Of a stretch of DNA of 46,600 bases, positions 24,126-46,600 are shown in pieces. Source of the DNA: Lachnospiraceae bacterium (GTDB lineage Bacteria; Bacillota; Clostridia; Lachnospirales; Lachnospiraceae); assembly GCA_017619975.1 (NCBI GenBank), contig JAFZRH010000046.1, forward strand, positions 1 to 46,600, written 5' to 3'. Position 1 is the first letter of the stretch, and every line of letters begins with the position of its first letter. A model generated the notes under the pieces. It saw only the letters and a program-made list of their open reading frames with translations. It made no database searches and had not been told where the DNA came from. A program made the position numbers and the translations under genes.

Positions 24126-25868
24126 ATGACGACTTCTGACGGCAACAGGAAAAAATCGGCCTCCCGCAGTCGGGAAGCAGCTATAAAACGCAGGCTGACG
24201 ATGAGTCTGCCGGGCGTACTGGCAACCGCTGTTTATATGCTTGCCGCAGTCTGGTTTTATATCAGTCTGCTTCGGTCTAAACTTGTAGCAACGAAATATC
24301 TGGTTCTGATCGCTGCGGCGCTTCTTCTGCTGGGCGCGCTGACGGCGTTTCTTTGTCATAATCTCCGGAAAAAGATTCGCTTTGCCGCAGGCGCTTTGAT
24401 TGCGGTACTGGCAGCGGCCGGTCTGCTGTACGGCGGCAGCGTGGTGAATAAGACCAAGAAGACCATAGAAGATATGATCGTTACGGAGACGACGACCGCG
24501 GAAGAAACGGAGACGAGTTCGGAAGAAACACCGGTGCCGGTGCAGGTGCAGATCGGCGTCTTTGTCCTGAAAGACGACCCGGCGCAGGCGATCGACGAGT
24601 TGTTGCCCGGACCTTTTGCGGTGCTGAAGGAAAAAGACCGGGCAGAAACGAATCTGGCACTGGAACGGATCGCCGGAGAGCTTGGCGTCAGCTTTGCCGT
24701 CGGAGAGCAGATCCTGGAATATGAGACGCATTTCGAAGCTGTCCGAGCCCTGCTGCTCGGCGATGTCAAAGCCGTTCTGATGAGCGAAGAGGATCTGCTG
24801 GATGCGGAGGCATTTCTGATCGAACTGGAAGTGATCCAGGATTCGGAGTTCCGCCAGCTGACGACACTGCACGTGGAAAAAGTCGTGCAGGTCCCGACAA
24901 CAGCCTCCGAGCCGGATCCGACCGAAACTGTCAGCAGTGATACAACTGCCGTCCCGGATGAAACGACAGAAGATCTGTCGGCAGAATCACCGGCCGAAAC
25001 GGAAAAAGCTACGGCCGCCCCTACGGCAGCGCCGACAGCCGCCCCTACGGCGGCGCCGCGGCCGGCGGAGAATGTTCTCACGAGTCCCAATGCCAACCGT
25101 ATTTTTACGGTTTACATTCAGGGAATTGATAAAAAGGGCCTTTCTTATAAATCCCGCTGCGACGTCAATATCCTGGCGGTCGTCAACGTCAACAGCCGGC
25201 AATGTCTGCTGATCAGCACACCGCGGGACTATTATATTCATATCCGGGATCTCGGCTACCGTCGGGACAAACTGACGCATAACGGCTGGTTCGGCGTCTG
25301 GTCCGTCATGGACACCATGAAGGATCTGTACAATGTCCAGAATAATTATTATTTCCGCTGCGATTTCAACGGCTTCCCCCGGATCATCGACGCGATGGGC
25401 GGGATCACTGTCTGGTGTGACAAAGACTTTACGACGCGAGGCGGACAGTACAGTTTTACGAAGGGTGAAAACACCATGAACGGCTCACAGGCGCTGGCCT
25501 ATGCCCGGGAACGCTATGCTTTCGGCGGCGGAGACGCGATCCGGGGATATCATCAGATGGATATTATCAAGGCGGTGCTGAACAAAGTAAAATCCGGCGA
25601 GGTTCTCTCTAATCTCGGAGGCGTTTTGAGCTCGCTGTCCGGCGCATTTGAGACCAATATGTCCTACGATCTGATCGCTTCACTGGTGCGCGAGCTGCAG
25701 AGCGGCAGCTGGAACATAACCAGCTATACCGTAGGTGGCAGCGGATCCACCGAATACAGTCCGATGATCGGCGCCAATGCTTATGTGATGTGGCCGAATT
25801 ATGATCAGGTGGGATACGCCAAATCCATGATCCGCCGGATCTACAACGGAGAATGGGTCACACCTTGA
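24126..25868 (+). CDS. LytR-CpsA-Psr (LCP) family glycopolymer ligase
   Basis: A 580-residue membrane protein. LCP enzymes transfer undecaprenyl-linked polymers to peptidoglycan (or protein) outside the cell. Three membrane helices lie in residues about 28-112. An extracellular region of about 75 residues (QIGVFVLKDDPAQAI to VLMSEEDLLDAEAF) resembles the extra domain seen in some Clostridia LCP proteins. A Thr/Pro/Ala linker with repeated TAAP follows (about 262-318), then the LCP catalytic domain (about 325-575): VYIQGID, RCDVNILAVVN, STPRDYYI, KLTHNG and the Arg-containing ALAYARERYAFGGGDAIRGYHQ. It opens the polymer locus, which suggests it anchors that polymer. The Shine-Dalgarno to ATG distance (14) is long. 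Confidence 0.92.
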   Translation: MTTSDGNRKKSASRSREAAIKRRLTMSLPGVLATAVYMLAAVWFYISLLRSKLVATKYLVLIAAALLLLGALTAFLCHNLRKKIRFAAGALIAVLAAAGLLYGGSVVNKTKKTIEDMIVTETTTAEETETSSEETPVPVQVQIGVFVLKDDPAQAIDELLPGPFAVLKEKDRAETNLALERIAGELGVSFAVGEQILEYETHFEAVRALLLGDVKAVLMSEEDLLDAEAFLIELEVIQDSEFRQLTTLHVEKVVQVPTTASEPDPTETVSSDTTAVPDETTEDLSAESPAETEKATAAPTAAPTAAPTAAPRPAENVLTSPNANRIFTVYIQGIDKKGLSYKSRCDVNILAVVNVNSRQCLLISTPRDYYIHIRDLGYRRDKLTHNGWFGVWSVMDTMKDLYNVQNNYYFRCDFNGFPRIIDAMGGITVWCDKDFTTRGGQYSFTKGENTMNGSQALAYARERYAFGGGDAIRGYHQMDIIKAVLNKVKSGEVLSNLGGVLSSLSGAFETNMSYDLIASLVRELQSGSWNITSYTVGGSGSTEYSPMIGANAYVMWPNYDQVGYAKSMIRRIYNGEWVTP

Positions 25869-25905
25869 TGAGAGAAAAAGTATTTTGCTGTAGGGCGGCA
25901 CGTTT

Positions 25906-27873
25906 ATGAAAGAGACAAAAACCAAAAGGAAAAAGAAAAAACCGATAGAACACTGGCAATTCATTACGCTTCTGATGATGCTTTTTGGTATTGTGGCTAT
26001 TCACGCGGCATATTTTCTTGCCCTTTGGATGCGCTTTGACTTTACCTATTCGGCAATTCCGGCACAGTATCTGCTTGTTTTCACACAAACGATTACAGTT
26101 TATTCGATCGTTTGTGTAGTCGTTTTTCTGATTGTCAGATTGTATCGCAGTATTTGGCGTTTTGCCAGTTATATGGAACTGCTGATGACGATGGCTGCTT
26201 CTGCCTTTACGTCTGTTGTTTACGGGGTTGTGATCACGTCGTTTTTTCAGAAGATGCCGGTGTCCTATCATCTTTTAGGCGCTGCCCTGCAGTTTATTTT
26301 TCTGATTGGAATTCGTTTTTCCTACCGCTTGTATCTTTTGATCCGCCGTACATCCCGGGATAAAGAAGGTCCCGTGGAACGGGTCATGCTGATCGGAGCC
26401 GGTTCAGCCGGACAGATGATCCTGCGGGACATCAATCACGGCGGGGAGCGGCGCAGCCGGGTTGTCTGCCTGATTGATGACAATCCCAACAAATGGAACC
26501 GCTATATCGACGGCGTACCGGTCGTAGGCGGCCGGGATGATATCCTTCCCAATGCCGAAAAGTACCGGATCAACAAAATCTATTTCGCGATCCCGAGCGC
26601 ATCCAGCGCGGACAGACGGGAGATTTTAAATATCTGCAAGGAGACCGGCTGCGCTTTAAAGCAGCTGCCCCGTATGTATCAGGATTATGAGGGACAGGTC
26701 TCTACACTGGCGCTTCGCAGCGTCTCCATGGAAGACCTTCTGGGCCGTGAGCCGATCGAGACCAATATGAACGGGGTTTTCAAGCAGATCAAAGGAAAGA
26801 CCGTACTGGTCACCGGCGGCGGCGGCTCCATCGGCAGCGAGCTCTGCCGGCAGATCGCGGATCATCGGCCGGGCCGGCTGATCATTTTTGATATTTATGA
26901 AAACAATGTTTACGATATCCAACAGGAGTTGAAGAAAAAGCATCCGGAACTCGATCTGCGGGTCCTGATCGGTTCCGTCCGGGACAGCCGCCGGGTCTTC
27001 GATCTGTTTGAAACCTATCGGCCGCAGATCGTGTATCATGCGGCGGCGCACAAACATGTTCCCCTGATGGAGGACAGTCCCTGCGAAGCTATCAAAAACA
27101 ATACGCTGGGGACCTATAAAACGGCATACGCTGCCATGGTGCACGGATGTGAACGCTTCGTGCTGATCTCGACGGATAAAGCCGTGAACCCGACCAATAT
27201 CATGGGCGCCAGCAAACGGCTCTGTGAAATGGTCATCCAAAGTTTTTCTTCCATGATAAAAGAAGGCCGTGCCGCAGAGATCCCACAGCTTTTTACCCAT
27301 GAAGGAAATCATCGTACCGTGGATCCGAAACGCTTTGATTTCAGCAAGGTGAAGACGGAATTCGCGGCGGTACGCTTCGGCAATGTGCTGGGCAGCAACG
27401 GTTCCGTGGTGCCGCTTTTCCGCCGGCAGATCGAAAACGGCGGACCGGTCACCGTAACGCACCCGGATATCATCCGCTATTTCATGACGATTTCCGAAGC
27501 GGTCAGTCTGGTGATGCTGGCGGGAACGTATGCCAAAGGCGGCGAGATCTTTGTGCTGGATATGGGAAGTCCGGTCAGCATCGATTCGCTGGCCAGAAAC
27601 CTGATCAAGCTTTCCGGCTACCGCCCGGACGTGGACATCAAGATCGTCTACACGGGACTGCGCCCCGGCGAGAAGCTGTATGAAGAGAAGTTAATGGAAG
27701 AGGAAGGCCTGCAGAAGACGGAAAACGATCTGATCCATATCGGAGCTCCGATACCGTTTGACAAAGAACTGTTTTTCCGGCAGATGGCTTCCCTGATGCA
27801 GGCAGCCTATAACAATAAACGGAACATTGAAGAAATGGTGGCCGAGATGGTGCCGACGTATCATCTGGAGTAA
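25906..27873 (+). CDS. Membrane-bound UDP-HexNAc 4,6-dehydratase (PglF/CapD-like)
   Basis: A 655-residue protein. Four N-terminal membrane helices (about 20-150) are followed by a CoA-binding-like Rossmann domain (about 160-280, MLIGAGSAGQMILRDI) and the catalytic extended SDR domain (about 295-610). That domain has TGGGGSIG at 303-310, HAAAHKHVPLME, and STDKAVNPTNIMGASK, where D424-K425 takes the place of the usual Tyr-x3-Lys. This family converts UDP-GlcNAc to UDP-4-keto-6-deoxy-HexNAc. With the aminotransferase, phosphoglycosyltransferase and acetyltransferase that follow, it supplies a bacillosamine-like or AATGal-like sugar. Length and motifs are complete. Confidence 0.93.
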   Translation: MKETKTKRKKKKPIEHWQFITLLMMLFGIVAIHAAYFLALWMRFDFTYSAIPAQYLLVFTQTITVYSIVCVVVFLIVRLYRSIWRFASYMELLMTMAASAFTSVVYGVVITSFFQKMPVSYHLLGAALQFIFLIGIRFSYRLYLLIRRTSRDKEGPVERVMLIGAGSAGQMILRDINHGGERRSRVVCLIDDNPNKWNRYIDGVPVVGGRDDILPNAEKYRINKIYFAIPSASSADRREILNICKETGCALKQLPRMYQDYEGQVSTLALRSVSMEDLLGREPIETNMNGVFKQIKGKTVLVTGGGGSIGSELCRQIADHRPGRLIIFDIYENNVYDIQQELKKKHPELDLRVLIGSVRDSRRVFDLFETYRPQIVYHAAAHKHVPLMEDSPCEAIKNNTLGTYKTAYAAMVHGCERFVLISTDKAVNPTNIMGASKRLCEMVIQSFSSMIKEGRAAEIPQLFTHEGNHRTVDPKRFDFSKVKTEFAAVRFGNVLGSNGSVVPLFRRQIENGGPVTVTHPDIIRYFMTISEAVSLVMLAGTYAKGGEIFVLDMGSPVSIDSLARNLIKLSGYRPDVDIKIVYTGLRPGEKLYEEKLMEEEGLQKTENDLIHIGAPIPFDKELFFRQMASLMQAAYNNKRNIEEMVAEMVPTYHLE

Positions 27874-27915
27874 GATCATATAACAGCCTATAATCACCCG
27901 GAAGGAGATACCGCC

Positions 27916-29223
27916 ATGAATGCAGCAGAAATCCGAAAAGATACACGATTTGAAGGAATAGAACCGTTTCCGTCCCGTATCTGGCTTTCCAGCCCCACGA
28001 TGCACGGTGAAGAGCAATTCTGGGTAGATGAAGCTATCCGAACCAACTGGGTCTCCACTGTCGGAGAGAATATCAATGAAGTAGAGAAGCTTTGTGCAGC
28101 CAGAATCGGCCGGAAGTATGCCGTAGCGCTGTCCAGTGGTACGGCAGCCCTTCATTTATCTGTGAAACTGGCCGGTGAGCGCCTGTACGGACAGCCGAAA
28201 ACCGGGCATGGCACACTGGAAGGCCGCAAAGTTTTTTGCAGTGACATGACCTTTGACGCGACTGTGAATCCGGTCGCGTACGAAGGCGGTGAAGCCGTCT
28301 TTATCGACACCGAATACGATACCTGGAACATGGATCCGGAAGCTTTGAAGAAAGCATTCGAAATTTATCCGGAGGTGCGGCTGATTGTTGTGGCGCATTT
28401 ATACGGAACGCCCGGCAAGATCGATGAGATCCGAGCCATAGCGGATGCGCATGATGCGCTGATCGTGGAAGATGCGGCAGAATCTTTCGGCGCATCTTAC
28501 AAAGGTATTCAGACCGGCATGTTCGGTGATTACAGCATCATCAGCTTCAACGGCAACAAGATCGTAACCGGAAGTTCCGGGGGCATGTTCCTGACAGACA
28601 GCCAGGAAGACGCCAATAAAGCCCGAAAATGGTCCACGCAGAGCAGGGAGGACTCCGCCTGGTATCAGCACGAAGAATTGGGGTATAATTACCGGATGAG
28701 CAACATCATAGCCGGTATTGTCCGCGGCCAGTTGCCGTATCTGGAGAAACATATCGCACAAAAGAAAGCGATTTATGAACGCTATCGGGAAGGACTGAAA
28801 GGTTTGCCGGTCCGGATGAATCCGATCGACTTTGCCGTTTCAGAACCCAATTACTGGCTCAGCTGCCTGATCATAGAGGAAGCTGCTATGTGCCGGACCG
28901 TTCGGAGCGAAAAGGAGGCGCTGTATGTCAGTGATTCTGAAAAGAGCTGTCCGACGGAGATCCTGGAAGCCTTGGCAGCTTTTAATGCGGAAGGCAGGCC
29001 GATCTGGAAGCCGATGCATATGCAGCCGATATACCGGATGCATCCGTTTATTACCGTAAATGGCAGCGGCAGAGCCAGAAGCAATGCCTATATCAAGGAA
29101 ACAGGTTCCGTAGACGTGGGAGCGGATATTTTCCACAGAGGTTTGTGTCTGCCGAGTGACAACAAAATGACGGCAGAGCAGCAAGACCGAATTATTGAGA
29201 TTATCCGAAGATGCTTTCAATAA
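27916..29223 (+). CDS. DegT/DnrJ/EryC1-family sugar aminotransferase (PglE-like)
   Basis: A 435-residue PLP enzyme that should aminate the 4-keto sugar made by the upstream dehydratase. The PLP lysine is K215 in SFNGNKIVTGSSGG; the DAAESFGA strand (about 191) is the usual Asp-containing cofactor site. N-terminal WLSSPTMHGEEQFWVDEAI is typical of PglE/LegC-type aminotransferases. There is a short insertion with ALYVSDSEKSC near residue 335. The gene follows the dehydratase by 42 bases with AAGGAG upstream. Product: a UDP-4-amino-4,6-dideoxy-HexNAc. Confidence 0.93.
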   Translation: MNAAEIRKDTRFEGIEPFPSRIWLSSPTMHGEEQFWVDEAIRTNWVSTVGENINEVEKLCAARIGRKYAVALSSGTAALHLSVKLAGERLYGQPKTGHGTLEGRKVFCSDMTFDATVNPVAYEGGEAVFIDTEYDTWNMDPEALKKAFEIYPEVRLIVVAHLYGTPGKIDEIRAIADAHDALIVEDAAESFGASYKGIQTGMFGDYSIISFNGNKIVTGSSGGMFLTDSQEDANKARKWSTQSREDSAWYQHEELGYNYRMSNIIAGIVRGQLPYLEKHIAQKKAIYERYREGLKGLPVRMNPIDFAVSEPNYWLSCLIIEEAAMCRTVRSEKEALYVSDSEKSCPTEILEALAAFNAEGRPIWKPMHMQPIYRMHPFITVNGSGRARSNAYIKETGSVDVGADIFHRGLCLPSDNKMTAEQQDRIIEIIRRCFQ

Positions 29224-29275: not shown

Positions 29276-29905
29276 ATGAGTCATAGAAAAAGCTTTTACG
29301 AAAAGTTTATTAAGCGGCCGCAGGATCTGTTGTGTGCTTCGTTGGCGATTGTCGTTTTAAGTCCGGTGATGGCGATTACAGCGCTTCTTGTCCGGATTAA
29401 ACTCGGGAAACCGGTCCTGTTTATTCAGGAACGTCCCGGACTGAATGGCAGGATTTTTCGTTTATACAAGTTTCGAACAATGCTTCCTATTAATGACAAT
29501 ACCGATTGTCCGCCGAATGACGCGGATCGACTGACGCCTTTTGGGAAAAAACTGAGAGCCACGTCACTGGATGAATTGCCGGAGCTGTTCAATATTGTTA
29601 AAGGAGATATGGCGGTTGTTGGTCCAAGACCTTTACTGGTTCGGTATCTTGAGCGTTATTCGTCGTATCAGGCAAGACGGCATGAAGTAAGACCGGGCTT
29701 TACAGGCTTGGCTCAAATTCATGGTCGGAACGCGATTGACTGGGACGAGAAGCTGGATTGGGATGTTCGGTATGTTGATCATGTTTCGTTCCTGGGAGAT
29801 TGGAAGATAATCTTTAAGACAATAAAATTAGTTCTGAAGCACGAAGGAATCAATGCAGACGGGGAAGCAACGGCAGCGGAGTTTCTTGGAAGCCGGAAGG
29901 AATAG
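29276..29905 (+). CDS. Undecaprenyl-phosphate phosphoglycosyltransferase (PglC-like)
   Basis: A 209-residue monotopic phosphoglycosyltransferase that moves a phospho-sugar from UDP-sugar to undecaprenyl phosphate, starting the lipid-linked repeat unit. One re-entrant N-terminal helix (about 15-38) is followed by the catalytic core with RLYKFRTM, the D99-E100 dyad in SLDELPEL, and VGPRPLLVRYLERYSSYQARRHEVRPGFTGLAQ (split here: VGPRPLL; RHEVRPGFTGLAQ). The small size (no extra membrane domain) matches PglC, which uses diNAc-bacillosamine, and fits the neighbours. From here on the sequence is clearly more AT-rich than upstream. Confidence 0.94.
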   Translation: MSHRKSFYEKFIKRPQDLLCASLAIVVLSPVMAITALLVRIKLGKPVLFIQERPGLNGRIFRLYKFRTMLPINDNTDCPPNDADRLTPFGKKLRATSLDELPELFNIVKGDMAVVGPRPLLVRYLERYSSYQARRHEVRPGFTGLAQIHGRNAIDWDEKLDWDVRYVDHVSFLGDWKIIFKTIKLVLKHEGINADGEATAAEFLGSRKE

Positions 29906-29916
29906 GGAGTATCCAC

Positions 29917-30564
29917 ATGGAGGATATCATAATTATCGGTGCAGGCGGATTTGGGCGCGAAGTCGCCTGGATCATTGAAAGAATCAACCAGATTGAAAAA
30001 AAATGGAATCTGCTTGGATTCCTGGATGATTCACCTTCTGTTTGTGAGGATTCTTTAAACGGATACAGGCTTCTTGGTGGGACTGAAGAAGCGGTGCACT
30101 ATCCGGAAGCTCGTTTCGTCTGTGCCATCGCGTCACCGCTGATAAGAAAAAAAGTTGTTGAGTTATTGAAAAAAATACTGCCGGACTGTCGCTTCGCAAC
30201 AATCGTTGATCCTTCTGTTATAAAATCTGACAGAATCCGGATCGGGGAGGGGGCCGTCATCTGTGCAGCTGTCATTATGACTGTGAACATTTCGGTCGGA
30301 GAACATGTCATTATAAATCTGGACTGTACAGTGGGGCATGATGCGGTTCTTGAAGATTATGTAACGCTGTCACCCAGTGTCAATATCTCGGGCGGGACTC
30401 AAATCGGAACCTGCAGTGAGATCGGTACAGGTGCTTTTGTTCTTCAGTACAAAAATGTCGGTTCCTGTACCAAAATAGGAGCAGGTGCGGTGATTGTAAA
30501 TGATATCCCGGATTGTTGCGTTGCAGTCGGAGTCCCGGCGAAACTGTTGCCGGATCGAAGATAG
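29917..30564 (+). CDS. Sugar N-acetyltransferase (PglD/NeuD-like)
   Basis: A 215-residue left-handed beta-helix acyltransferase. The N-terminal Rossmann-like domain (IIIGAGGFGREVAWIIE, about 4-20; LLGFLDDSPS) binds the UDP-sugar; the C-terminal hexapeptide repeats (about 100-205) bind acetyl-CoA, including CTVGHDAVLEDYVTLSP with the catalytic His of this family (GHDA) near residue 138. PglD acetylates the 4-amino group to give UDP-diNAcBac. It follows the phosphoglycosyltransferase by 11 bases. An O-acetyltransferase role is the alternative. Confidence 0.9.
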   Translation: MEDIIIIGAGGFGREVAWIIERINQIEKKWNLLGFLDDSPSVCEDSLNGYRLLGGTEEAVHYPEARFVCAIASPLIRKKVVELLKKILPDCRFATIVDPSVIKSDRIRIGEGAVICAAVIMTVNISVGEHVIINLDCTVGHDAVLEDYVTLSPSVNISGGTQIGTCSEIGTGAFVLQYKNVGSCTKIGAGAVIVNDIPDCCVAVGVPAKLLPDRR

Positions 30565-30622: not shown

Positions 30623-31540
30623 ATGGCAGATTCAACCTTTCAACCATATGTAATTGATGAAACGACATTTAAAAAAATGCAGGCAAAAATGTTGGAGATG
30701 CTGCTCTATTTCAGAGATTTTTGCCAGGAACATAAATTGATGTTTTATTTATGCGGCGGCGGTGCGATCGGTGCAATCCGGGAACACGGTTTTATTCCGT
30801 GGGATGATGATATTGACTGTTTTATGCCGCGGGCAGATTATGAACGTTTTCCTGCTTTGTGGGAACAGTACGGTGATAAAGACAGATTTGTTTTCTGCCG
30901 ATCCGATGACAAGGTGAATTATCATCATTCCTGTTCTTCTTTGAGAGACCCTTCCACTACGTTTATCTGTTCTTATAATCAGAATCTGGATATCTGCCAT
31001 GGTGTAGCCCTGGAGTTTGGACCGATAGACGGTTGCCCGAAATCCAGAATCAAGCGATATATCCAACTGTTTCATGCTTTTAATTTTGCTCTCTTCAACA
31101 CACAGAGACTTCCGAATAATAAAGGTAAATTATTTCGGGTAGCTGCGAGTATCATTTACAAACTTGTTCCGTCCGGTAAAACGCGGTATAAACTGTGGAA
31201 ACGGGCAGAGAAAAAGATGTCCCGGTACTCATGGGATGATTGTGACAGTGTTACCGAACTCATTGGCAGTGTAAAAGGAATGCTGCTTGTGCATCCGAAA
31301 GAGTGGTTTGCTTCGCAGATCTGGGTCGAGTTTGAGGGACATCAGGTTCCGGTCATGGCTGGATATCATCAGTATTTGACAAGGATATTTGGAGATTATA
31401 TGCAGAGACCGCCGGAAAGTGAACGCCATCCGAAACACGAACTTGAGTTTGTGGATATGGATCATCCCTATACATTCTATCGGGGAATCAAATATTTCCC
31501 GGACGGAAAGACAGAAAGACGAGGGAGACAGAATGGCTAA
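30623..31540 (+). CDS. licD: LicD-family phosphotransferase
   Basis: A 305-residue protein of the LicD family (nucleotidyltransferase fold). LicD enzymes transfer phosphocholine from CDP-choline, or ribitol/other phosphates, onto glycans. The core motif is GGGAIGAIREHGFIPWDDDID (residues 45-65), with metal-binding D61-D63 and D65; ALEFGPIDGCP and a C-terminal YMQRPPESERHPKHE complete the family pattern. The locus also encodes LicA- and LicC-type enzymes and a choline-type transporter 8-11 kb downstream, so phosphocholine is the leading candidate for the group it transfers. Its last 8 bases overlap the next gene. Confidence 0.9.
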   Translation: MADSTFQPYVIDETTFKKMQAKMLEMLLYFRDFCQEHKLMFYLCGGGAIGAIREHGFIPWDDDIDCFMPRADYERFPALWEQYGDKDRFVFCRSDDKVNYHHSCSSLRDPSTTFICSYNQNLDICHGVALEFGPIDGCPKSRIKRYIQLFHAFNFALFNTQRLPNNKGKLFRVAASIIYKLVPSGKTRYKLWKRAEKKMSRYSWDDCDSVTELIGSVKGMLLVHPKEWFASQIWVEFEGHQVPVMAGYHQYLTRIFGDYMQRPPESERHPKHELEFVDMDHPYTFYRGIKYFPDGKTERRGRQNG

Positions 31541-33282: not shown

Positions 33283-33284
33283 AA

Positions 33285-38366: not shown

Positions 38367-38395
38367 TTGACAAACAGGTGAGAAAGGTGCATAAT
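38367..38395 (+). promoter_or_regulatory. Promoter of the phosphocholine module
   Basis: TTGACA (38367-38372), 17-base spacer, CATAAT (38390-38395); AGAAAGGTGATAG lies before the ATG at 38437. The 38396-38436 leader is the likely target if the encoded winged-helix domain autoregulates. Confidence 0.85.
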
Positions 38396-38436
38396 TTGCG
38401 CCGTGAGGTTCACGAAATATAGAAAGGTGATAGTTC

Positions 38437-40200
38437 ATGAACATTCAAGAATCGGACATTCTGAAAACACTGATCAATCATCCATATAGCAGTCAACGAA
38501 ATCTGGCGCTCTTTTCGGGATACTCATTGGGCGTCGTTAATCGTACTCTTCGTTCACTTCAGCAATCAGCGTATCTGACAAAAGACTATACCCTGACTTC
38601 GAAGGCACGGGAGGCAATCAGAAAAACAGTGCCCCGCAATGCGATTATTCTGGCAGCCGGTTTCGGGATGCGTATGGTCCCTATCAATCTGGCTGCACCG
38701 AAAGCGCTGCTGGAGGTGCACGGCGAACCGCTGATCGAACGGCAGATCCGACAGCTTCACGAAGTCGGAATCAGGGACATTACGGTTGTTGTCGGCTTTA
38801 TGAAGGAACGCTTCGAATACCTGATCGACGAATACGGCGTCGAACTGGCCGTCAATCCGGAATATGCGGCGAAAAACAATATCGCCTCGCTGGCCCTGGT
38901 CGCGGACAGGATCTCCAACAGCTATATCATTCCGTCCGACATCTGGTGTGAGAACAATCCGTTCAGCCGTCATGAACTGTATTCCTGGTACATGGTCAGC
39001 GACCGGATCGCGGCGGAATCGGACGTCCGGGTCAACCGGAAAATGGAACTGGTGCAGATCCCGGAAAAGGAAGGCGGCAATGCCATGATCGGGATCGCCT
39101 ATCTGCTGGAGAAAGATGCGGCGCGGATCCGTGAAAGCCTGAAAACAGGCGCGGTGAGCAGCAGTCAGGATTTCTGGGAGATTACGCTGTATGACAAAGG
39201 GAAAATGATCCTTCCGGCTAGACTGGTCAGGGCGGATGAGATCACGGAGATCAATACCTACGAGCAGTTAAGAGAACTGGACGGGGAATCCAATCATTTA
39301 AAGTCTGACGCGCTGGATGTGATCGCTTCGGTATTTGAAACGACGACCGATCAGATCTCCGATATAGCCGTTCTGAAAAAGGGGATGACCAACCGCTCTT
39401 TCCTTTTCACCGTGCGAGGGGAAAAATATATTATGCGGATCCCGGGCGAGGGCACCGATCAGCTCATCAACCGGCAGGAGGAAGCCACGGTCTTCCGCAC
39501 GATCTCCGGGAAGGGCCTCTGCGACGATCCGGTCTATATCAATCCGCAAAACGGCTATAAGATCACGAAATTTCTGGAAGGCGTGCGTGTCTGTGACAGC
39601 GAATCGCCGGAAGATCTGAAAAAATGCATGGAAAAGCTGCGGGCATTTCACGCGATGAAGCTGCAGGTTTTCCATACCTTTGACATTTTCGGACAGATAG
39701 ATTTTTACGAATCCCTGTGGAACGGACAGCGAAGCATCTATCGGGACTATGAAAAAACCAAGGCGAACGTCATGTCGCTCCGTGCTTATATCGACGCCCA
39801 GGAAAAGGACCGGTGCCTGACGCATATCGATGCAGTCCCCGACAACTTCCTTTTCTACACCGGGCCGGACGGAAAGGAAGCGCTGCAGCTGACCGACTGG
39901 GAATACGCCGGCATGCAGGATCCGCACGTGGATATCGCAATGTTCTGCATCTACAGCCTGTACGGCAAACGCCAGACCGACCGGCTGATCGATCTGTACT
40001 TTGAGGAGAAATGCAGACCGGCGGTGCGGGCCAAGATCTACTGTTATGTTGCGGCCTGCGGGCTGCTCTGGTCGAACTGGTGCGAGTACAAGAGTCATCT
40101 GGGCATTGAATTCGGGGAGTATTCCCTGCGTCAGTACCGCTATGCCAAAGACTTTTACCGCTATGCGAGAGCCGAAATGGAGGCGGCCGGTCATGAGTGA
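38437..40200 (+). CDS. Winged-helix / LicC cytidylyltransferase / LicA choline kinase fusion
   Basis: A 587-residue three-part protein. Residues 1-62 form a winged helix-turn-helix of MarR-like type (ILKTLINHPYSSQRNLALFS, SLGVVNRTLRSLQQSAYLTK). Residues about 67-285 are a LicC-type nucleotidyltransferase: ILAAGFGMRMVPINLAAPKA (71-90), VVVGFMKERFEYL, NPEYAAKNNIASLALV. Residues about 290-587 are a choline/ethanolamine kinase: LTHIDAVPDNFLF with D465, and LQLTDWEYAGMQDPHVDIAMF with D487. It should phosphorylate choline and couple it to CTP, giving CDP-choline in one polypeptide; the N-terminal domain may sense operon DNA. The stop overlaps the next gene by 8 bases. Confidence 0.92.
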   Translation: MNIQESDILKTLINHPYSSQRNLALFSGYSLGVVNRTLRSLQQSAYLTKDYTLTSKAREAIRKTVPRNAIILAAGFGMRMVPINLAAPKALLEVHGEPLIERQIRQLHEVGIRDITVVVGFMKERFEYLIDEYGVELAVNPEYAAKNNIASLALVADRISNSYIIPSDIWCENNPFSRHELYSWYMVSDRIAAESDVRVNRKMELVQIPEKEGGNAMIGIAYLLEKDAARIRESLKTGAVSSSQDFWEITLYDKGKMILPARLVRADEITEINTYEQLRELDGESNHLKSDALDVIASVFETTTDQISDIAVLKKGMTNRSFLFTVRGEKYIMRIPGEGTDQLINRQEEATVFRTISGKGLCDDPVYINPQNGYKITKFLEGVRVCDSESPEDLKKCMEKLRAFHAMKLQVFHTFDIFGQIDFYESLWNGQRSIYRDYEKTKANVMSLRAYIDAQEKDRCLTHIDAVPDNFLFYTGPDGKEALQLTDWEYAGMQDPHVDIAMFCIYSLYGKRQTDRLIDLYFEEKCRPAVRAKIYCYVAACGLLWSNWCEYKSHLGIEFGEYSLRQYRYAKDFYRYARAEMEAAGHE

Positions 40201-40942
40201 GCCGATGCATACCGTAAAACGGGCCGTGATCATGGCGGCCGGAATCGGGAAACGAATGCAGCCGCTGACCTTTGAGACCCCGAAGCCGCTCATTCGGGTC
40301 AACGGCACGAGAATGATCGATACGGTCGTCCGGGCTCTTCATGAGAACGGGATCCGGGAGATCTATGTTGTCGTCGGATATTTAAAAGAGCAGTTTTATG
40401 AGTGGGCGAAGAATCAGCCCGGGATTCAATTGATTGAAAACCCTTATTATGACGTCTGCAACAATATCTCGTCCCTGTATGCCGCGCGGCAGCATCTGCA
40501 GGACTGCATCATCCTGGACGGAGATCAGATCATCTATCATCCGCAAATCCTTGACCCGCATTTTGTTCGGTCGGGGTACAATGCCGTCTGGTGCGGCGGG
40601 AAGACGAAGGAATGGCTGCTGCAGACGGAGAACGGCATCATAAAAAGCTGTTCCCGCACGGGAGGCTCGAACGGCTGGCAGCTGTACTCCGTGTCCCGGT
40701 GGACTGCGGAAGACGGAGAAAAACTGAGCCGTTTTACGGCGCAGGAGTTTGAAGGCGGCAACCGGCAGATTTATTGGGACGATATTCCGATGTTCTGCTA
40801 TTTTGAGGCCTTCGAGCTGGGCATCCGGGAAATGAAGGCAGATGACATCGTTGAGATCGACAGCCTGGAAGAATTGGCCGGGACAGATCCCGGTTATCGA
40901 TATATTCTCAATACGCAAGAATCGGAGAGGAAACAATCATGA
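40193..40942 (+). CDS. licC: Second LicC-type phosphocholine cytidylyltransferase
   Basis: A 249-residue stand-alone nucleotidyltransferase with VIMAAGIGKRMQPLTFETPK (residues 12-31), EIYVVVGYLKEQF, NPYYDVCNNISSLYAA and ILDGDQII, closely following the LicC pattern (N-N-I-x-S-L). It duplicates the activity predicted for the middle domain of the upstream fusion. The ATG at 40193 overlaps the upstream stop, and its own stop overlaps the transporter ATG (ATGA at 40939), so three genes are translationally coupled. It may accept a different phospho-alcohol, or balance CDP-choline supply. Confidence 0.9.
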   Translation: MSEPMHTVKRAVIMAAGIGKRMQPLTFETPKPLIRVNGTRMIDTVVRALHENGIREIYVVVGYLKEQFYEWAKNQPGIQLIENPYYDVCNNISSLYAARQHLQDCIILDGDQIIYHPQILDPHFVRSGYNAVWCGGKTKEWLLQTENGIIKSCSRTGGSNGWQLYSVSRWTAEDGEKLSRFTAQEFEGGNRQIYWDDIPMFCYFEAFELGIREMKADDIVEIDSLEELAGTDPGYRYILNTQESERKQS

Positions 40943-42468
40943 AACAAGAAAGAAAGAAAAACAATCAGATTGACTGGATGATTACGCTGGTCCCCTTTAT
41001 TCTGATCGTTGGTCTGGCCGTCTATCTGTTCCTGTTCCCGGAGCAGGCCAACAAGGTAATTTCACAGGTGCGGTTTTTCTTTGGAGACACCCTGGGCCTG
41101 TACTATCTGGTGATCGGAGTGGGGATCCTTGTGATCTCGCTGTTCCTGTCTTTCTCCAAATACGGGGATATCGTTCTGGGAGATCCGGATGAAAAGCCGC
41201 GGTATTCTTTCTTTACCTGGGGCAGCATGATGTTCACCTGCGGCCTGGCTGCGGATATTCTGTTCTACTCTTTTGCGGAATGGGTCATGTATGCCGCCAA
41301 TCCGCATATCGCCGAGATGGGTTCCATTACCGAGTGGGCCGGCGTTTTCCCGCTGTTCCACTGGAGCTTCATCCCCTGGGCTTTTTATCTGGTGCTGGCG
41401 GTTGCTTTCGGCTTTATGCTGCATGTCCGCAAGAGAAACCGGCAGCGCTATTCGGAGGCCTGCCGGCCGGTGCTCGGAAAGCGGGCCGACGGTCTGCTGG
41501 GCCGCGTGATCGATCTGTTTGCGCTGTTTGCCCTGCTGGCCGGAACGGCTACGACGTTTTCCGTGGCGACACCGCTGATGGCCGGTATCATCGTGGATCT
41601 GTTCGGGGTTGCTTTAAGCCGTACGGCGGTCACGATCATTATTCTGCTGATCACCTGCGCGGTCTATACGTACGCCGTTCTGCACGGATTTAAAGGCATC
41701 AGCTGGCTGGCAAAGCTTTGCATCTACCTGTTCTTCGGTCTTCTGATCATCGTGCTGCTGATCGGCGGGCAGGGCCGCTTTATCATTGAGAACGGCTTCC
41801 AGTCGCTCGGCAAGATGTTCCAGCACTTTATCGAGCTCTCAACGTACGCGGATCCGACCCGGGCGAACAATTTCCCGCAGGACTGGACGATCTATTACTG
41901 GGCTTACTGGATGGTCTGGTGCATTGCGGCGCCTTTCTTTATCGGCAACGTCTCCCGCGGCAGAACGATCAAACAGACGATCCTGGGCGGGTATATTTTC
42001 GGTGTCGGCTCCACGATCGTCAGCTTTATTGTCCTGGGCAACTATTCGCTGGGCCTGCAGACCGGCGGCGCGGCGGATTTTATTGCGCAGTATGAGGCCA
42101 GCGGAGATCTGTATGATCTGATCCTGAATATCATCCATACGATGCCGGCATCGACCTTCATTCTGATCCTGACCATGCTGTGCATGATCGCTTTCTACGC
42201 GACCTCCTTTGACTCGATCGCCTACACGGCGGCCTGCTACAGCTACAAGAGGCTGGGCGAGAATGAAAAACCGAACGCCTGGATCACGCTTCTCTGGTGC
42301 ATTCTGCTGATTGCCCTGCCGATCGCGCTTGTCTTTTCGGAGAGCAGCATGAACAATATTCAGAGCGTCAGCATTATTTCGGCTTTCCCGATCGGGATCA
42401 TCATGATCCTGATGATCTGGAGCTTTATGAAGGATGCCGGACAGTATCTGAAAAACGGTTCAAAATGA
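40939..42468 (+). CDS. BCCT-family transporter, probable choline importer
   Basis: A 509-residue carrier with 12 predicted helices of the betaine/choline/carnitine family. The BCCT signature is seen as WTIYYWAYWMVWCIAAPFFIGNVSRGRTI (aromatic cluster from W316 onward). The cation-site loop reads MMFTCGLAADILFYSFAEW in place of the Gly-rich M-G-I-G of BetP, so it belongs to a diverged subgroup and may use H+ or exchange rather than Na+. It occupies the place LicB (a drug/metabolite-type choline permease) holds in pneumococcus and Haemophilus lic operons. The coupled start with licC strongly suggests choline as substrate. Confidence 0.9.
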   Translation: MKQERKKNNQIDWMITLVPFILIVGLAVYLFLFPEQANKVISQVRFFFGDTLGLYYLVIGVGILVISLFLSFSKYGDIVLGDPDEKPRYSFFTWGSMMFTCGLAADILFYSFAEWVMYAANPHIAEMGSITEWAGVFPLFHWSFIPWAFYLVLAVAFGFMLHVRKRNRQRYSEACRPVLGKRADGLLGRVIDLFALFALLAGTATTFSVATPLMAGIIVDLFGVALSRTAVTIIILLITCAVYTYAVLHGFKGISWLAKLCIYLFFGLLIIVLLIGGQGRFIIENGFQSLGKMFQHFIELSTYADPTRANNFPQDWTIYYWAYWMVWCIAAPFFIGNVSRGRTIKQTILGGYIFGVGSTIVSFIVLGNYSLGLQTGGAADFIAQYEASGDLYDLILNIIHTMPASTFILILTMLCMIAFYATSFDSIAYTAACYSYKRLGENEKPNAWITLLWCILLIALPIALVFSESSMNNIQSVSIISAFPIGIIMILMIWSFMKDAGQYLKNGSK

Positions 42469-42488
42469 GATTTTGCGGCTCGCCGGCA

Positions 42489-42516
42489 TTGACATCTGAT
42501 CCGAAAGACTTATAAT
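42489..42516 (+). promoter_or_regulatory. Promoter of the repeat-only wall-binding protein
   Basis: TTGACA (42489-42494), 16-base spacer, TATAAT (42511-42516): full consensus hexamers, so probably strong expression. Confidence 0.88.
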
Positions 42517-42567
42517 TAAACTGTAAAAACAGCCGCTTGGGTCGGTCTGAAAGCAAAGGAGATTCGA

Positions 42568-43746
42568 ATGAAACGGGGAATTCTGAAAGTGCTCGGTGCG
42601 GCTTTTCTGATCGCACTGGCGATGTTCTTCCTGCTGCCGAACAAAGCGATGGCGGAAGAAAAGAACGGCTGGGTCCAGGAAAACGGACGGTGGCGCTACT
42701 ACAGCGACGGGTATATGTACCGGAACCAGGGACTGGGCGAGTATAACGGCGACGAATATGCGAGCCTGTACTGGTTTGACGACGAAGGATATATGGTCAC
42801 CGGCTTTTACAAAACCGAAGGCGGGGACGGTTATTATCTGTCGTATTTCGGACCGGACGGAAAACGCTGGTCGAAAAACGGCTGGCAGAAGATGGACGGG
42901 TATTGGTATTACATCAGCAACGGATACGTCTGTGCCGGCAAAAATGGATACTTTATGTATGAAAAGAATTCATTGGGCTTGTATACGATCGACGGAGCCG
43001 TATACGGTTTTGATGAATTCGGTCATATGGTAACGGGCTGGGTCCTTGCGGAAATGACGGTATGGAAAACTGTTTATTACGGCGAGTATCAAGAAACTGT
43101 TCCGGTGTTTGATGAAAACGGCGAACAGCTGACGGAAAACCGCTGGTATTATTTTGAAGCGAACGGAAAAGCCGTTTCCGGATGGGTCAAGCGGGATGCT
43201 GACTGGTTCTATTTCTATCAAGGCAGGGCAACAGCCGGCGATGTCTATGAGATCGGCGACAAGAAATACTGCTTCGATGAAGAAGGCGTCATGCAGACCA
43301 ACAAGTGGATTAAGCATGAATCTTCTGACGGCACGATGAAATGGTACTATTTCGGCAGCAACGGCGCCATGGCCAAGGACTGCTGGATGAAGATCAGCGG
43401 AAAATGGTACTATTTTGAAGGCGAAAACTATGTGACCGGCTGGAAGAAGATCTCCGACAAGTGGTATTACTTCAACGCCGGCGGAGATATGGTGACCGGC
43501 TGGAAGAAGATCGGCAGCAAGTGGTACTTCTTTAAACCGTCCGGCGTGATGGCGGCTAAGGAATGGTACGACGGTTACTGGCTGGGTGCCGACGGAGCAT
43601 GGACCTATACCTATAAGGCTTCCTGGAAAAAGAATGCCAGCGGCTGGTGGTATGGTGATACCAGCGGCTGGTACGCAAAGAACTGCACGATCATGATCAA
43701 CGACAAACTCTATACTTTTAACGCGAACGGATACTGGGTGCCGTAA
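42568..43746 (+). CDS. Secreted choline-binding-type repeat protein
   Basis: A 392-residue secreted protein. The signal peptide (GILKVLGAAFLIALAMFFLLP) has likely cleavage after AMA, about residue 29. The rest is almost entirely cell-wall-binding (CW_binding_1/choline-binding) repeats of about 20 residues: GWQKMDGYWYYISNG, CWMKISGKWYYFEGE, GWKKISDKWYYFNAGGDMVT, GWKKIGSKWYYFF-type units, with Trp/Tyr pairs that form choline cages in pneumococcal proteins. No catalytic domain is recognisable. Some repeats have insertions (for example ALLY..VWKTVYYGEYQETVP near 165). Lying directly after choline uptake genes, it may coat or cross-bridge phosphocholine polymers. Confidence 0.88.
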   Translation: MKRGILKVLGAAFLIALAMFFLLPNKAMAEEKNGWVQENGRWRYYSDGYMYRNQGLGEYNGDEYASLYWFDDEGYMVTGFYKTEGGDGYYLSYFGPDGKRWSKNGWQKMDGYWYYISNGYVCAGKNGYFMYEKNSLGLYTIDGAVYGFDEFGHMVTGWVLAEMTVWKTVYYGEYQETVPVFDENGEQLTENRWYYFEANGKAVSGWVKRDADWFYFYQGRATAGDVYEIGDKKYCFDEEGVMQTNKWIKHESSDGTMKWYYFGSNGAMAKDCWMKISGKWYYFEGENYVTGWKKISDKWYYFNAGGDMVTGWKKIGSKWYFFKPSGVMAAKEWYDGYWLGADGAWTYTYKASWKKNASGWWYGDTSGWYAKNCTIMINDKLYTFNANGYWVP

Positions 43747-43792
43747 AACAGCTTATTTCGGCACCGGGCCGCCTCCGAAAAAGAAGGCGGTA

Positions 43793-43828
43793 AAAACGGA
43801 CGGGATGACGGATTTCCCGTCCGTTTTT
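43793..43828 (+). terminator. Terminator of the repeat-only protein
   Basis: AAAACGGACGGGA (43793-43805) / TCCCGTCCGTTTT (43815-43827), perfect 13-base stem with T-run; a second small stem CCGCCT/AGGCGG lies just upstream (43769-43790). Confidence 0.9.
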
Positions 43829-43850
43829 GTATGCCAAAACGTTCCTCTTC

Positions 43851-43879
43851 TTGATTTTCCGGCCGAAATACAGTATAAA
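43851..43879 (+). promoter_or_regulatory. Promoter of the papain-like protease
   Basis: TTGATT (43851-43856), 17-base spacer, TATAAA (43874-43879). Confidence 0.75.
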
Positions 43880-43939
43880 TATTTTACAGAAACATATTGC
43901 TCCCGATCAGAACAGGAAGAAGGGAAAACGGAGAACAGA

Positions 43940-46600
43940 ATGAAAAAAAGACTCTTGTCATGGCTGCTTTGCCTCTCCTTTGTTTTATGCATCATGCCCG
44001 TCCAAGCGAAGGCAGAAGATGACGCTGCCAAGGCGTCCTCGTTAACAGAATCGCCTGCCGTTGTTTTGGAATCGGATATTGAACCCTGTCCCGATGACGC
44101 GCTGCCGTCGGCGCTGCCGGACGCGCTGCCGGAAACGGCCCGGGAAGAGCAGGAGGATCCCGTCCCGGAATTTGTTCGCGGGTACATTCCGGAAGAGGAC
44201 GGGCTGATCTATCCGCAGACACTGTCTCTAAACCCCGACGCGGCTATCCTCCAGAACGATTCGGCTGCGATCCCTCCCAGATATACGGCTCAGTATACGT
44301 CGGTGAAGAATCAGGGTGTGAACGGCCTTTGCTGGTCGTTTGCGACGAATGCGATAATCGAAACCTGGCTGCTGAAAAATTACCCCGACTTAGACCCTGA
44401 GACAGTTGACTTTTCCGAAATGCATATGGCCTATGCGCTCAGTGATCACAGCGGCAATACCTACGGCTACGACCGTGCTCCGGGTGACGGCGGAAACCGA
44501 AATAAATCGTCCTCCTATCTGATGCGGGGCAATCCGCTCGATTCCTCCGGAAGCCGGCTCTGCATCGGCGGAGCCGTATTGGACAGCTATGATCGCTACA
44601 GCACCAGCGCACTGCCGGATCGGGCTTTAAGCACGACGCTTTATAATAAGCCGAAGACCATCGTGCCCAAAAACACCATCTTTATCGGCGGGAAAAAGGC
44701 GGAAGGCGAAGGGGCTTCCGATGCGCAGATCAAGGAAGCGATTCTGAAATACGGGAGCGTTGCGGCGGCTTTTTCCTGGGATAAATCAAATGCGACCGGC
44801 TCTACCGGAAACGGCAGTACGGATCACTACAATGCTTCGACCGCCTCCTACTATCTGAACACCACCGCTTTGGGAAACGATGCTCTCTATCTCAATCACA
44901 TGGTCCAGATAGTAGGCTGGGACGATAATTACTCCCGCACGAACTTCAACGCAAGCTGCCGCCCTTCCGGCAACGGCGCCTGGCGGATCAAAAATAGCTG
45001 GGGGACCAGTTGGGGCGATAACGGCTTCGCCTGGATCTCTTACGAAGACGCCGATTTCGCCTCCCTGGTCTGGGCAGTCGATAATGTCATCGGCTATGAC
45101 TGCAGCAAGCGTGAAACGCATGAGTGGGATTATCTCCCGAACGGTGCCTGGTGGAGGCCCTATATAGCGGATAACTATTACATCAGATATTTCCCTCTGA
45201 GCTCTCCGGAAGTGCTGACCTCTGTCCGGGTCTTTATTCCAAAAGCAGATTCCACCGTTGAGGTCGACGTGATTCCCGACTATCTCAATACCTCATTCGC
45301 GACGTCCGATTTCAGTGCTAAGGCCAGTCTGACGGTGGAATATCCCGGCTGGTATACGATTGATTTTGATGAGGATAAATTCGTTCTGTTGGACCCCACA
45401 AGCACGGACGGCAGCTGGTGGTTCGCCGTTGTCATCAAAAGCGAGAGCCCTTTGGGCTATGACACGAGTTTTGCCGGTAATTCCGCTTATTGGGATTACA
45501 ATCAGAAAGCCTGGCGCTATGACGACGGATTGGACCGTGCTTCCGTCGGCTGGTGCATCAAAGCCGTCACCTCCACCGATCCGGATTACGTTGCGATCTG
45601 GCAGGCCAAGACACAGATGGATCAGCCGGGCGCGCTCTGGAACTGGATCCGGGGCGGCAATACCGATGCGGCGCATATTCGCTGGGCTTTTGATAATTAC
45701 GGCCCTTACGGCACAACGATCACCTATACGCCGAATGATCTCTCGATCATGGATGAAAACGGCGGCATCTACCGTCCTCCTTACGGCAGTGATCCGGCGG
45801 CACTCTCCTTTACCGTGACTTTTACACGCGGGAATTCTTGGTTAAAATATCAATTAAGCAACATGGCAGTGGAGCCCTATCTGGGCCGGCTGACACTGAC
45901 GATGCCGCAGGAAACCTATTATCTGGGACAGACAATGACGCCGGTCCTGACAGTGGAGGGCAATCCCGGCGAGCTCTTCTGGTACTGGTTCGACGGACTG
46001 GATATTTTGAAAGAATCGATCGGATCGGCGGTACTGTCTCTGATTCCGAAAAAATACGGAACATATGAGTGCATGGTCTGCGCAGATGATGCCGTAGCTG
46101 CGTACCTCAATGTCTATGTCATGAACGAATACCTGGCCGGCTGGCAAAAGAATGCCAGCGGCTGGTGGTATCAGCATTCGGACGGGACGTATCCGAAGAG
46201 CCAGTGGGAAAAGATAGACGGCAAATGGTATCACTTCGATGCGAGAGGCTACATGCAGACGGGCTGGCTGAAACTGGAGGAAAAATACTACTATCTGGGC
46301 ACGAACGGCGCGATGACGACCGGCTGGCAGAAAGTCGGCGGAAAATGGTACTATCTGAACGGATCCGGGATCATGCAGACAGGCTGGCTGAAACTCGATG
46401 GACAGTATTTCTATCTGGATGCATCCGGCGCGATGACGACCGGCTGGCAGAAGATAAGTAGCAAGTGGTATCTGTTCAGCAAAGGCGGTGTGATGCAGAC
46501 CGGCTGGCAGCAGGTCGGGGACAAATGGTACTATCTGGATTCTTCCGGTGCGATGCAGACCGGCTGGATACAGCTGAACGGGAAATGGTACTATCTGGAT
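43940..46600 (+). CDS. Secreted papain-like (C1A) protease with choline-binding-type repeats (5' part)
   Basis: The frame is open for 887 codons to the window edge. The signal peptide (KKRLLSWLLCLSFVLCIMP, cleavage near AKA-ED) is followed by an acidic propeptide (to about 110) and a C1A peptidase domain with oxyanion Q125, nucleophile C131 (NGLCWSFAT), H320 (LNHMVQIVGWDD) and N352 (WRIKNSWGTSWG). Next comes a lectin-like domain (about 390-560, beginning WWRPYIADNYYIRYFPL) as found after the protease domain in Clostridia proteins such as Cwp84, an Ig-like segment (about 650-730) and at least seven 20-residue wall-binding repeats from about residue 733 (GWQKVGGKWYYLNGSGIMQT type). The ATG has GGAGAACAG upstream. 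It probably processes surface proteins while bound to the wall. Confidence 0.92.
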   Translation, partial: MKKRLLSWLLCLSFVLCIMPVQAKAEDDAAKASSLTESPAVVLESDIEPCPDDALPSALPDALPETAREEQEDPVPEFVRGYIPEEDGLIYPQTLSLNPDAAILQNDSAAIPPRYTAQYTSVKNQGVNGLCWSFATNAIIETWLLKNYPDLDPETVDFSEMHMAYALSDHSGNTYGYDRAPGDGGNRNKSSSYLMRGNPLDSSGSRLCIGGAVLDSYDRYSTSALPDRALSTTLYNKPKTIVPKNTIFIGGKKAEGEGASDAQIKEAILKYGSVAAAFSWDKSNATGSTGNGSTDHYNASTASYYLNTTALGNDALYLNHMVQIVGWDDNYSRTNFNASCRPSGNGAWRIKNSWGTSWGDNGFAWISYEDADFASLVWAVDNVIGYDCSKRETHEWDYLPNGAWWRPYIADNYYIRYFPLSSPEVLTSVRVFIPKADSTVEVDVIPDYLNTSFATSDFSAKASLTVEYPGWYTIDFDEDKFVLLDPTSTDGSWWFAVVIKSESPLGYDTSFAGNSAYWDYNQKAWRYDDGLDRASVGWCIKAVTSTDPDYVAIWQAKTQMDQPGALWNWIRGGNTDAAHIRWAFDNYGPYGTTITYTPNDLSIMDENGGIYRPPYGSDPAALSFTVTFTRGNSWLKYQLSNMAVEPYLGRLTLTMPQETYYLGQTMTPVLTVEGNPGELFWYWFDGLDILKESIGSAVLSLIPKKYGTYECMVCADDAVAAYLNVYVMNEYLAGWQKNASGWWYQHSDGTYPKSQWEKIDGKWYHFDARGYMQTGWLKLEEKYYYLGTNGAMTTGWQKVGGKWYYLNGSGIMQTGWLKLDGQYFYLDASGAMTTGWQKISSKWYLFSKGGVMQTGWQQVGDKWYYLDSSGAMQTGWIQLNGKWYYLD

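What the first reader, a model, noticed from the sequence alone, without database searches (positions are those of the whole stretch)
24126..46600. A linked system: bacillosamine-type glycan, phosphocholine decoration, and choline-docking exoproteins
Seen: in one direction lie an LCP ligase, dehydratase/aminotransferase/phosphoglycosyltransferase/acetyltransferase, LicD, TarI-like enzyme, Stealth, polymerase-TagF fusion, flippase, LicC-LicA, LicC, a BCCT carrier and two proteins with choline-binding-type repeats. Known: in pneumococcus, teichoic acid with an aminodideoxy sugar and phosphocholine is made by analogous steps and serves as anchor for choline-binding proteins. Inference: this organism has a self-contained, differently assembled version in which polymer synthesis, choline loading and docking proteins are encoded side by side.
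Basis: partly seen in the sequence, partly recalled or inferred. Interest (0 to 1): 0.82.

Follow-up and report, generated by a model that had tools for sequence, protein, structure and literature searches.

The report
Self-regulating choline-loading operon beside glycan genes
A gut-type bacterium carries genes that import choline and activate it for its surface, next to surface-glycan genes and proteins of the choline-docking type, and the main choline enzyme carries a DNA-binding head with a conserved matching DNA site at its own start codon, which suggests that it controls its own production.

Summary
The glycan part is a good bacillosamine-type set. The kinase half of the LicC-LicA fusion keeps 7 of 8 choline-pocket residues of pneumococcal LicA. 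Repeat-rich genomes track LicCA (7 of 11 against 0 of 50).

It is not one conserved unit. The portable core is licCA-licC-importer; repeat genes lie within 10 kb in 17 of 79 loci, and a same-genus relative has the core with no repeat match. The genome's only LicD is nearest to one in a LicD-IspD-SDR cassette, so the phosphocholine transferase is unproven.

New: LicCA has an N-terminal winged helix (75 of 77), and a palindrome starting GTTC sits at about -28 before licCA (58 of 77 against 16 of 868 control genes), often repeated across the start codon (27 of 77 against 0 of 868). In this genome the double site occurs once, at licCA, behind a promoter-like site. Best reading: an autoregulated kinase-cytidylyltransferase-repressor. 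DNA binding, surface phosphocholine and choline binding are untested.

The parts
24126..25868 (+). LCP (LytR-CpsA-Psr) ligase, 580 aa
   Evidence: Pfam PF03816 1.5e-33
25906..27873 (+). PglF-like nucleotide-sugar 4,6-dehydratase with membrane N-terminus
   Evidence: Pfam PF02719 1.1e-113
27916..29223 (+). PglE-like DegT aminotransferase
   Evidence: Pfam PF01041 9.1e-73; PDB 1o61/4ztc about 1e-60
29276..29905 (+). PglC-like phosphoglycosyltransferase
   Evidence: PDB 8e37 5.7e-62
29917..30564 (+). PglD-like acetyltransferase
   Evidence: Pfam PF17836; NCBIfam TIGR03570 197.9 bits, cut-off 160.8
30623..31540 (+). LicD family CDP-alcohol phosphotransferase; the only LicD found in the genome
   Evidence: PF04991 1.3e-38; 1 match in own genome; tree partner is a LicD beside IspD+SDR in G009
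31533..32252 (+). IspD/TarI-like cytidylyltransferase (frame open from 31389)
   Evidence: PF01128; a second, better IspD match lies at G000:C64
32242..33282 (+). extended SDR/epimerase
   Evidence: PF01370 2.4e-32
33213..34292 (+). Stealth-type phosphotransferase
   Evidence: PF11380 1.2e-45, CR1-CR4 regions found
34320..36869 (+). Wzy-type polymerase fused to TagF-type CDP-alcohol transferase, 849 aa
   Evidence: PF04932 and PF04464; no other fused match at 1e-30 in 116 genomes searched
36894..38330 (+). Wzx-type flippase
   Evidence: PF01943 4.8e-18
38367..38395 (+). promoter-like site TTGACA-17-CATAAT of licCA (11 of 12)
38408..38417 (.). operator-like copy 1, GTTCACGAAA (-29)
38433..38442 (.). 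operator-like copy 2, GTTCATGAAC, across the start codon
38437..40200 (+). LicCA: winged HTH (1-43) + cytidylyltransferase (about 66-250) + choline kinase (about 292-570)
   Evidence: Pfam; PDB 4r77 5.4e-33 and 1jyk 2.7e-28; pocket residues
40187..40942 (+). second LicC-like cytidylyltransferase
   Evidence: PDB 1jyk 1.3e-31
40939..42468 (+). BCCT-family carrier, probable choline importer
   Evidence: PF02028 9.4e-125; NCBIfam does not name the substrate
42489..42516 (+). promoter-like site TTGACA-16-TATAAT before repeat protein 1 (12 of 12)
42568..43746 (+). repeat protein 1, 392 aa, choline-type repeats only
   Evidence: PF19127 1.1e-35
43940..46600 (+). repeat protein 2: papain-type peptidase + choline-type repeats, cut by contig end (start codon chosen by eye; frame open from 43805)
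   Evidence: PF00112 4.7e-12, PF19127 7.9e-33

Best explanation
Three neighbouring modules. (1) 24126-38330 builds an undecaprenyl-linked glycan that starts with a bacillosamine-type sugar and receives alcohol-phosphate groups (LicD, Stealth, TagF-type domain); it is polymerised, flipped and attached to the wall by the LCP enzyme. (2) licCA-licC-BCCT imports choline and makes CDP-choline. LicCA is a three-in-one protein: winged HTH, CTP:phosphocholine cytidylyltransferase, choline kinase. Its winged helix most likely binds GTTC(A/G)(C/T)GAA(A/C) sites that lie just downstream of its own -10 box and across its start codon, so that the enzyme represses its own operon according to its state of substrate loading. 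(3) Phosphocholine put on the glycan, most likely by LicD, serves as anchor for secreted repeat proteins, two encoded next door and at least five elsewhere. Shown: domains, conserved pocket residues, conserved cis element and its unique place in the genome, co-occurrence. Inferred: every reaction, DNA binding, the effector, PCho on the surface, choline binding.
For: LicA pocket 7 of 8 (residues from PMC4364537), and those 7 positions plus Y506 are invariant in the 77-row alignment except V467, which the call does not list. Winged HTH in 75 of 77 LicCA longer than 560 aa plus two relatives. GTTC[AG] at -36..-20 in 58 of 77, control 16 of 868; GTTC right before the start codon 27 of 77, control 0 of 868; 74 of 77 upstreams under 75% identical. 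With the ORF caller's starts for both sides: TTCNNGAA in 52 of 80 licCA regions, other genes 89 of 855, shuffles mean 7.0 and at most 17. Double site once in 2.12 Mb, reversed control 0. Site present in 54 of 65 with the common recognition helix, 4 of 12 without (p 0.001). Promoter-like site just upstream. LicCA against 10 or more repeats p 7.6e-7 (2.5e-5 if the split gene of G035 is not counted). LicC2 in 64, BCCT in 62, LicB-like in 5 of 79 loci. LicD in 42 of 50 LicCA genomes.
Against: 8 of 50 LicCA genomes show no LicD, among them the repeat-rich G063, G072, G103 (drafts). 16 of 50 LicCA genomes show no PF19127 match. The window LicD groups with a LicD-IspD-SDR cassette from a genome without a LicCA orthologue. 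19 of 77 lack the upstream copy in the tested place. A slightly stricter double-site pattern hit 8 of 299 family genomes, only 3 before licCA, reversed control 2 genomes, so the bare pattern is not specific across genomes. The promoter scan as a whole is not above chance (7 found, 5.7 expected). No structure could be predicted.
Confidence: 0.6

Rival explanations
1. The window LicD moves the alcohol-phosphate made by the IspD-like and SDR enzymes, and phosphocholine is moved by another enzyme, for instance the TagF-type domain.
For: Tree: nearest row is a LicD beside IspD and SDR in G009, support 99/94, and G009 has no LicCA orthologue; the cassette order LicD-IspD-SDR is the same there (40, 32, 29% identical). 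L070, the locus most like the window, has TagF (52%), flippase, lic core and two repeat genes but no LicD within the fetched 10 kb; its genome has one divergent LicD elsewhere. The genome has a second IspD, so the window copy is spare for isoprenoids.
Against: It is the only LicD found, and its only NCBIfam match is a cholinephosphotransferase, far below cut-off (58.8 of 225 bits). TagF-type models matched near licCA are few (3 ORFs in 80 loci), so TagF is no general phosphocholine transferase.
Confidence: 0.4
2. The lic operon feeds membrane phosphatidylcholine, as the LicCA fusion of Treponema denticola does, and the repeat proteins are unrelated.
For: LicCA plus a cholinephosphotransferase makes phosphatidylcholine in T. 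denticola (PMC8590670, passage). Four CDP-alcohol phosphatidyltransferase matches in the genome, not assigned. LicCA without LicD in 8 of 50 genomes.
Against: Association of LicCA with repeat proteins and with LicD (p 7.6e-7 and 0.007); place beside glycan genes.
Confidence: 0.15
3. The GTTC..GAA element is not the site of LicCA's own winged helix: it belongs to another regulator, or works in the mRNA by pairing of the two copies over the start codon.
For: The two copies can pair at 8 of 10 positions in the window; positions 1-5 pair in 24 of 24 double sites. No binding was measured.
Against: Position 6 pairs in 9, position 7 in 13 and position 10 in 2 of 24; many loci have one copy only; the element goes with the recognition helix (54 of 65 against 4 of 12); two of the three loci with a shortened N-terminus show no strict site (L101, L120; L124 has one).
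Confidence: 0.2
4. The repeats bind another ligand (a carbohydrate), so there is no docking on phosphocholine.
For: The best summed PDB scores of the repeat region are clostridial toxin repeat domains, ahead of choline-binding protein J (1.4e-45) and LytA; family membership alone does not fix the ligand.
Against: 29 of 40 matched repeats in the 7 repeat proteins have Trp at the first aromatic of the W-Y-Y motif; PF19127 above cut-off; co-occurrence with LicCA.
Confidence: 0.2

Closest known systems
Streptococcus pneumoniae lic pathway and choline-binding proteins
   Same: Choline kinase, phosphocholine cytidylyltransferase, LicD family, aminodideoxy sugar in the polymer, repeat proteins (passages of PMC13385700).
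   Different: Kinase and cytidylyltransferase are one protein with a DNA-binding head; a second LicC; a BCCT carrier in place of LicB; acetylated bacillosamine-type set; polymerase-TagF fusion; repeat genes beside the lic operon.
Treponema denticola LicCA (CDP-choline pathway)
   Same: LicC-LicA fusion (PMC8590670, passage).
   Different: There it makes phosphatidylcholine. The passage names no DNA-binding head; a Treponemataceae relative found here (L138) does have one in the aligned place.
BirA and NadR, enzymes that are also repressors (recalled, no call)
   Same: Biosynthetic enzyme with a DNA-binding domain and sites at its own pathway genes.
   Different: Other fold combination, other substrate; site across the start codon; one double site in the genome.
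Lic-1 survey of 26 phosphocholine-expressing species (PMC10434233)
   Same: LicA-D homologues mark glycan-linked phosphocholine (abstract and section 5 read).
   Different: The terms Clostridi, Lachnospir, Firmicutes, fusion, choline-binding and BetT do not occur in its main text.

Membership tests
lic-type phosphocholine decoration | Choline kinase with aromatic choline pocket | tested here: met
   T318, D465, V467, Y490, W545, W548, Y562 match LicA residues; Glu213 is Tyr506
lic-type phosphocholine decoration | CTP:phosphocholine cytidylyltransferase | tested here: met
   Best PDB match of both domains is 1jyk; substrate not assayed
lic-type phosphocholine decoration | LicD that transfers phosphocholine | tested here: inconclusive
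   One LicD; tree partner is a LicD-IspD-SDR cassette
lic-type phosphocholine decoration | Choline importer | tested here: inconclusive
   BCCT, substrate not fixed by family models; in the lic block in 62 of 79 loci
lic-type phosphocholine decoration | Phosphocholine on the surface polymer | not testable with these tools
   needs 31P NMR or antibody
choline-binding proteins | Choline-binding repeats above family cut-off | tested here: met
   PF19127 in both window proteins and 5 others
choline-binding proteins | Binding to choline | not testable with these tools
   needs choline-resin assay
enzyme-repressors (BirA/NadR kind) | DNA-binding domain fused to the enzyme | tested here: met
   HTH_24 in 75 of 77, a set chosen for length over 560 aa
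enzyme-repressors (BirA/NadR kind) | Conserved site at its own promoter | tested here: met
   58 of 77 against 16 of 868; once in the own genome
enzyme-repressors (BirA/NadR kind) | Ligand-dependent DNA binding | not testable with these tools
   needs binding assay
bacillosamine pathway | Dehydratase, aminotransferase, acetyltransferase and PglC-type transferase together | tested here: met
CDP-ribitol (TarI) pathway | TarI-type rather than isoprenoid IspD | tested here: inconclusive
   Below all NCBIfam cut-offs; second IspD elsewhere in the genome

The most novel reading that the evidence does not exclude
In many gut Firmicutes, some Coriobacteria and Treponema relatives, surface choline loading is governed by one protein, a winged-helix choline kinase-cytidylyltransferase that reads its own substrate or product level and represses its operon through paired GTTCACGAA sites, one of which overlaps the start codon; the lic core with this switch spreads as a unit and is plugged into different glycan clusters and repeat-protein sets.
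Probability: 0.6. Interest if true: 0.7.

Novelty: new variant of a known kind. Interest (0 to 1): 0.62.

Why it matters
Phosphocholine on surface polymers is known mainly from respiratory and oral bacteria. If this reading holds, a choline-activating enzyme that is also its own repressor is widespread in gut bacteria, and gut choline supply would be tied directly to what these cells display and dock on their surface. The site is short and conserved, so the idea can be tested with one purified protein and one DNA probe.

Tried and rejected
One conserved super-operon: rejected, since repeat genes are within 10 kb of licCA in 17 of 79 loci and immediately next to the block in 9 (permutation mean 5.2, 161 of 5000 as high); the window's glycan models hit few ORFs in 80 loci (IspD 1, PglE 3, LCP 3, WzyTagF 3, PglD 4, PglC 7, PglF 13, Stealth none).

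A lic regulon over the repeat genes: rejected as far as seen; in the window the exact GTTCAYGAA sites are the two at licCA plus one at 6067 on the other strand, and the double site is unique in the genome.

A clade of phosphocholine-type LicDs that holds the window LicD: not found. A second winged LicCA-like protein (31% identical, G000:C46) has another helix sequence and no GTTC site in the 150 bases before it.

Paper searches for the winged LicCA or its operator found nothing fitting (open-licence library only).

Full report
Observation. Two things were missed: an SDR gene after the TarI-like gene, and a winged helix-turn-helix at the front of the LicC-LicA fusion.

Glycan module. The aminotransferase is nearest to 1o61 and 4ztc (that these are PglE is recalled), the phosphoglycosyltransferase to 8e37, the acetyltransferase passes the NeuD/PglB/VioB cut-off. 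The TarI-like gene passes no NCBIfam cut-off for either IspD or ribitol type, but the genome has a second, better IspD match (190 against 145 bits), so a polyol role for the window copy is likely. The Wzy-TagF fusion was not met again at 1e-30 in 116 genomes, where other matches cover only the TagF half.

Choline module. The kinase half aligns to pneumococcal choline kinase 4r77 and the middle to 1jyk. Of the eight residues that the LicA paper names round choline (passages of PMC4364537), seven are the same and Glu213 is Tyr506. LicC2 also has 1jyk as best match. PMC6697681 (passages) warns that LicC relatives may act on other substrates such as AEP, so LicC2 is not proven to use phosphocholine.

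How it travels. In 79 with a long LicCA the block holds LicC2 in 64, BCCT in 62 and a LicB-like carrier in 5. Some loci are cut by contig ends; 60 have a gene on both sides of the block. Repeat genes occur within the fetched flanks in 17, LicD in 15; LicD is next to the block in 8 (permutation mean 3.4, 34 of 5000 as high), repeat genes in 9 (5.2; 161 of 5000). L070 repeats the window's order TagF-Wzx-LicCA-LicC2-BCCT-repeat-repeat with 52-85% identity for the first five, TagF there being a separate gene. G020, G031 and G034 also have repeat genes near LicCA.

Genome-level association. Among 61 genomes, 11 have a LicCA orthologue (G000, G001, G020, G028, G031, G033, G034, G035, G046, G057, G058; drawn by me; G035 is split, G058 shows only the kinase part with a separate LicC gene). 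Seven of these have 10 or more PF19127 matches at 1e-6; none of the other 50 does (p 7.6e-7; with G035 moved, 2.5e-5). G001, G046, G057 and G058 have LicCA and 0, 0, 1 and 0 such matches. LicD is found in 9 of the 11 and 18 of 50 (p 0.007). In 50 of the 80 named LicCA genomes, taken in list order without L100, LicD is found in 42 and PF19127 in 34, 10 or more in 19. So LicCA is common without repeats; rich repeat sets were not seen without LicCA in the 61.

The transferase. The genome's only LicD pairs with a LicD of G009 (99/94), which lies in a LicD-LicD-IspD-SDR row in a genome without LicCA orthologue. It may serve the polyol donor, or LicD may take choline and the TagF domain the polyol. 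Both fit; I lean to LicD, as the only family with precedent for phosphocholine, at about 0.6.

The switch. Pfam HTH_24 is found in 75 of 77 LicCA. This set is 73 of the 75 with a frame over 560 aa (L119, a near copy of L114, and L142, cut upstream, were left out) plus the window, G001, G031 and G034; three shorter ones (L101, L120, L124) start without the domain, so the share is conditional on length. The upstream regions show a palindrome GTTC(A/G)(C/T)GAA(A/C): GTTC at -28/-29 in 53 of 77, GTTC[AG] at -36..-20 in 58 of 77 against 16 of 868 other genes, and GTTC directly before the start codon in 27 of 77 against 0 of 868. LicCA starts were set by alignment, control starts by the ORF caller; the comparison with the caller's starts for both is 52 of 80 against 89 of 855, shuffles 7.0 on average. 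Where two strict sites follow each other, the step is 24 or 25 bases in 16 of 24 cases. Some starts are GTG, giving the perfect palindrome GTTCGTGAAC. 74 of 77 regions are under 75% identical, so this is not recent common descent. The site goes with the recognition helix: 54 of 65 with SLGx(V/I)N, 4 of 12 without. In the window the copies are at 38408 and 38433, 12 bases after a TTGACA-17-CATAAT site. In the genome the double site is unique. Across 299 family genomes a related strict pattern hit 8, 3 of them before LicCA, with 2 genomes hit by the reversed control: the pattern alone is a weak detector, while its position before licCA is the strong evidence. Pairing of the two copies as RNA is less likely: three of ten positions pair poorly.

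Regulation units. licCA has its own promoter-like site, repeat gene 1 a perfect consensus one (42489-42516), and a terminator-like hairpin lies at 43807; the scans as a whole found 7 promoters (5.7 expected) and 10 terminators (6.0 expected), so single sites are weak evidence.

Verdict.

Noticed in passing
L051 (G046), L072, L078: licCA-licC-BCCT with an MttB-like methyltransferase gene inserted before BCCT (name by model built from L051 and by recall); in G046 corrinoid-system-like genes precede it. Suggests a tie to quaternary-amine metabolism.
   Followed up: no
G000:C46:11257-12993 (L059): Second LicCA-like protein, 31% identical, beside a Transp_cyt_pur permease; the pair recurs in G010 (L067). 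Substrate unknown.
   Followed up: partly
G000 contigs C14, C37, C69 (L060, L062, L063): BspA-type leucine-rich-repeat proteins ending in choline-type repeats and a shared C-terminal segment.
   Followed up: no
L184, L188, L190, L192, L199 (same genus): LicD next to a LicC-like gene whose match to LicCA begins in the winged-helix part but has no kinase: winged helix + nucleotidyltransferase may be a wider theme.
   Followed up: no
window 34320-36869: Wzy-type polymerase and TagF-type transferase in one frame, not met again at 1e-30 in 116 genomes.
   Followed up: partly
L123, L126: Three TTCNNGAA sites before licCA, the first two 24 bases apart.
   Followed up: no
window 3974-7206: Sodium-pumping oxaloacetate decarboxylase beta subunit and a carboxylase-type subunit, unrelated to the finding.
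   Followed up: no
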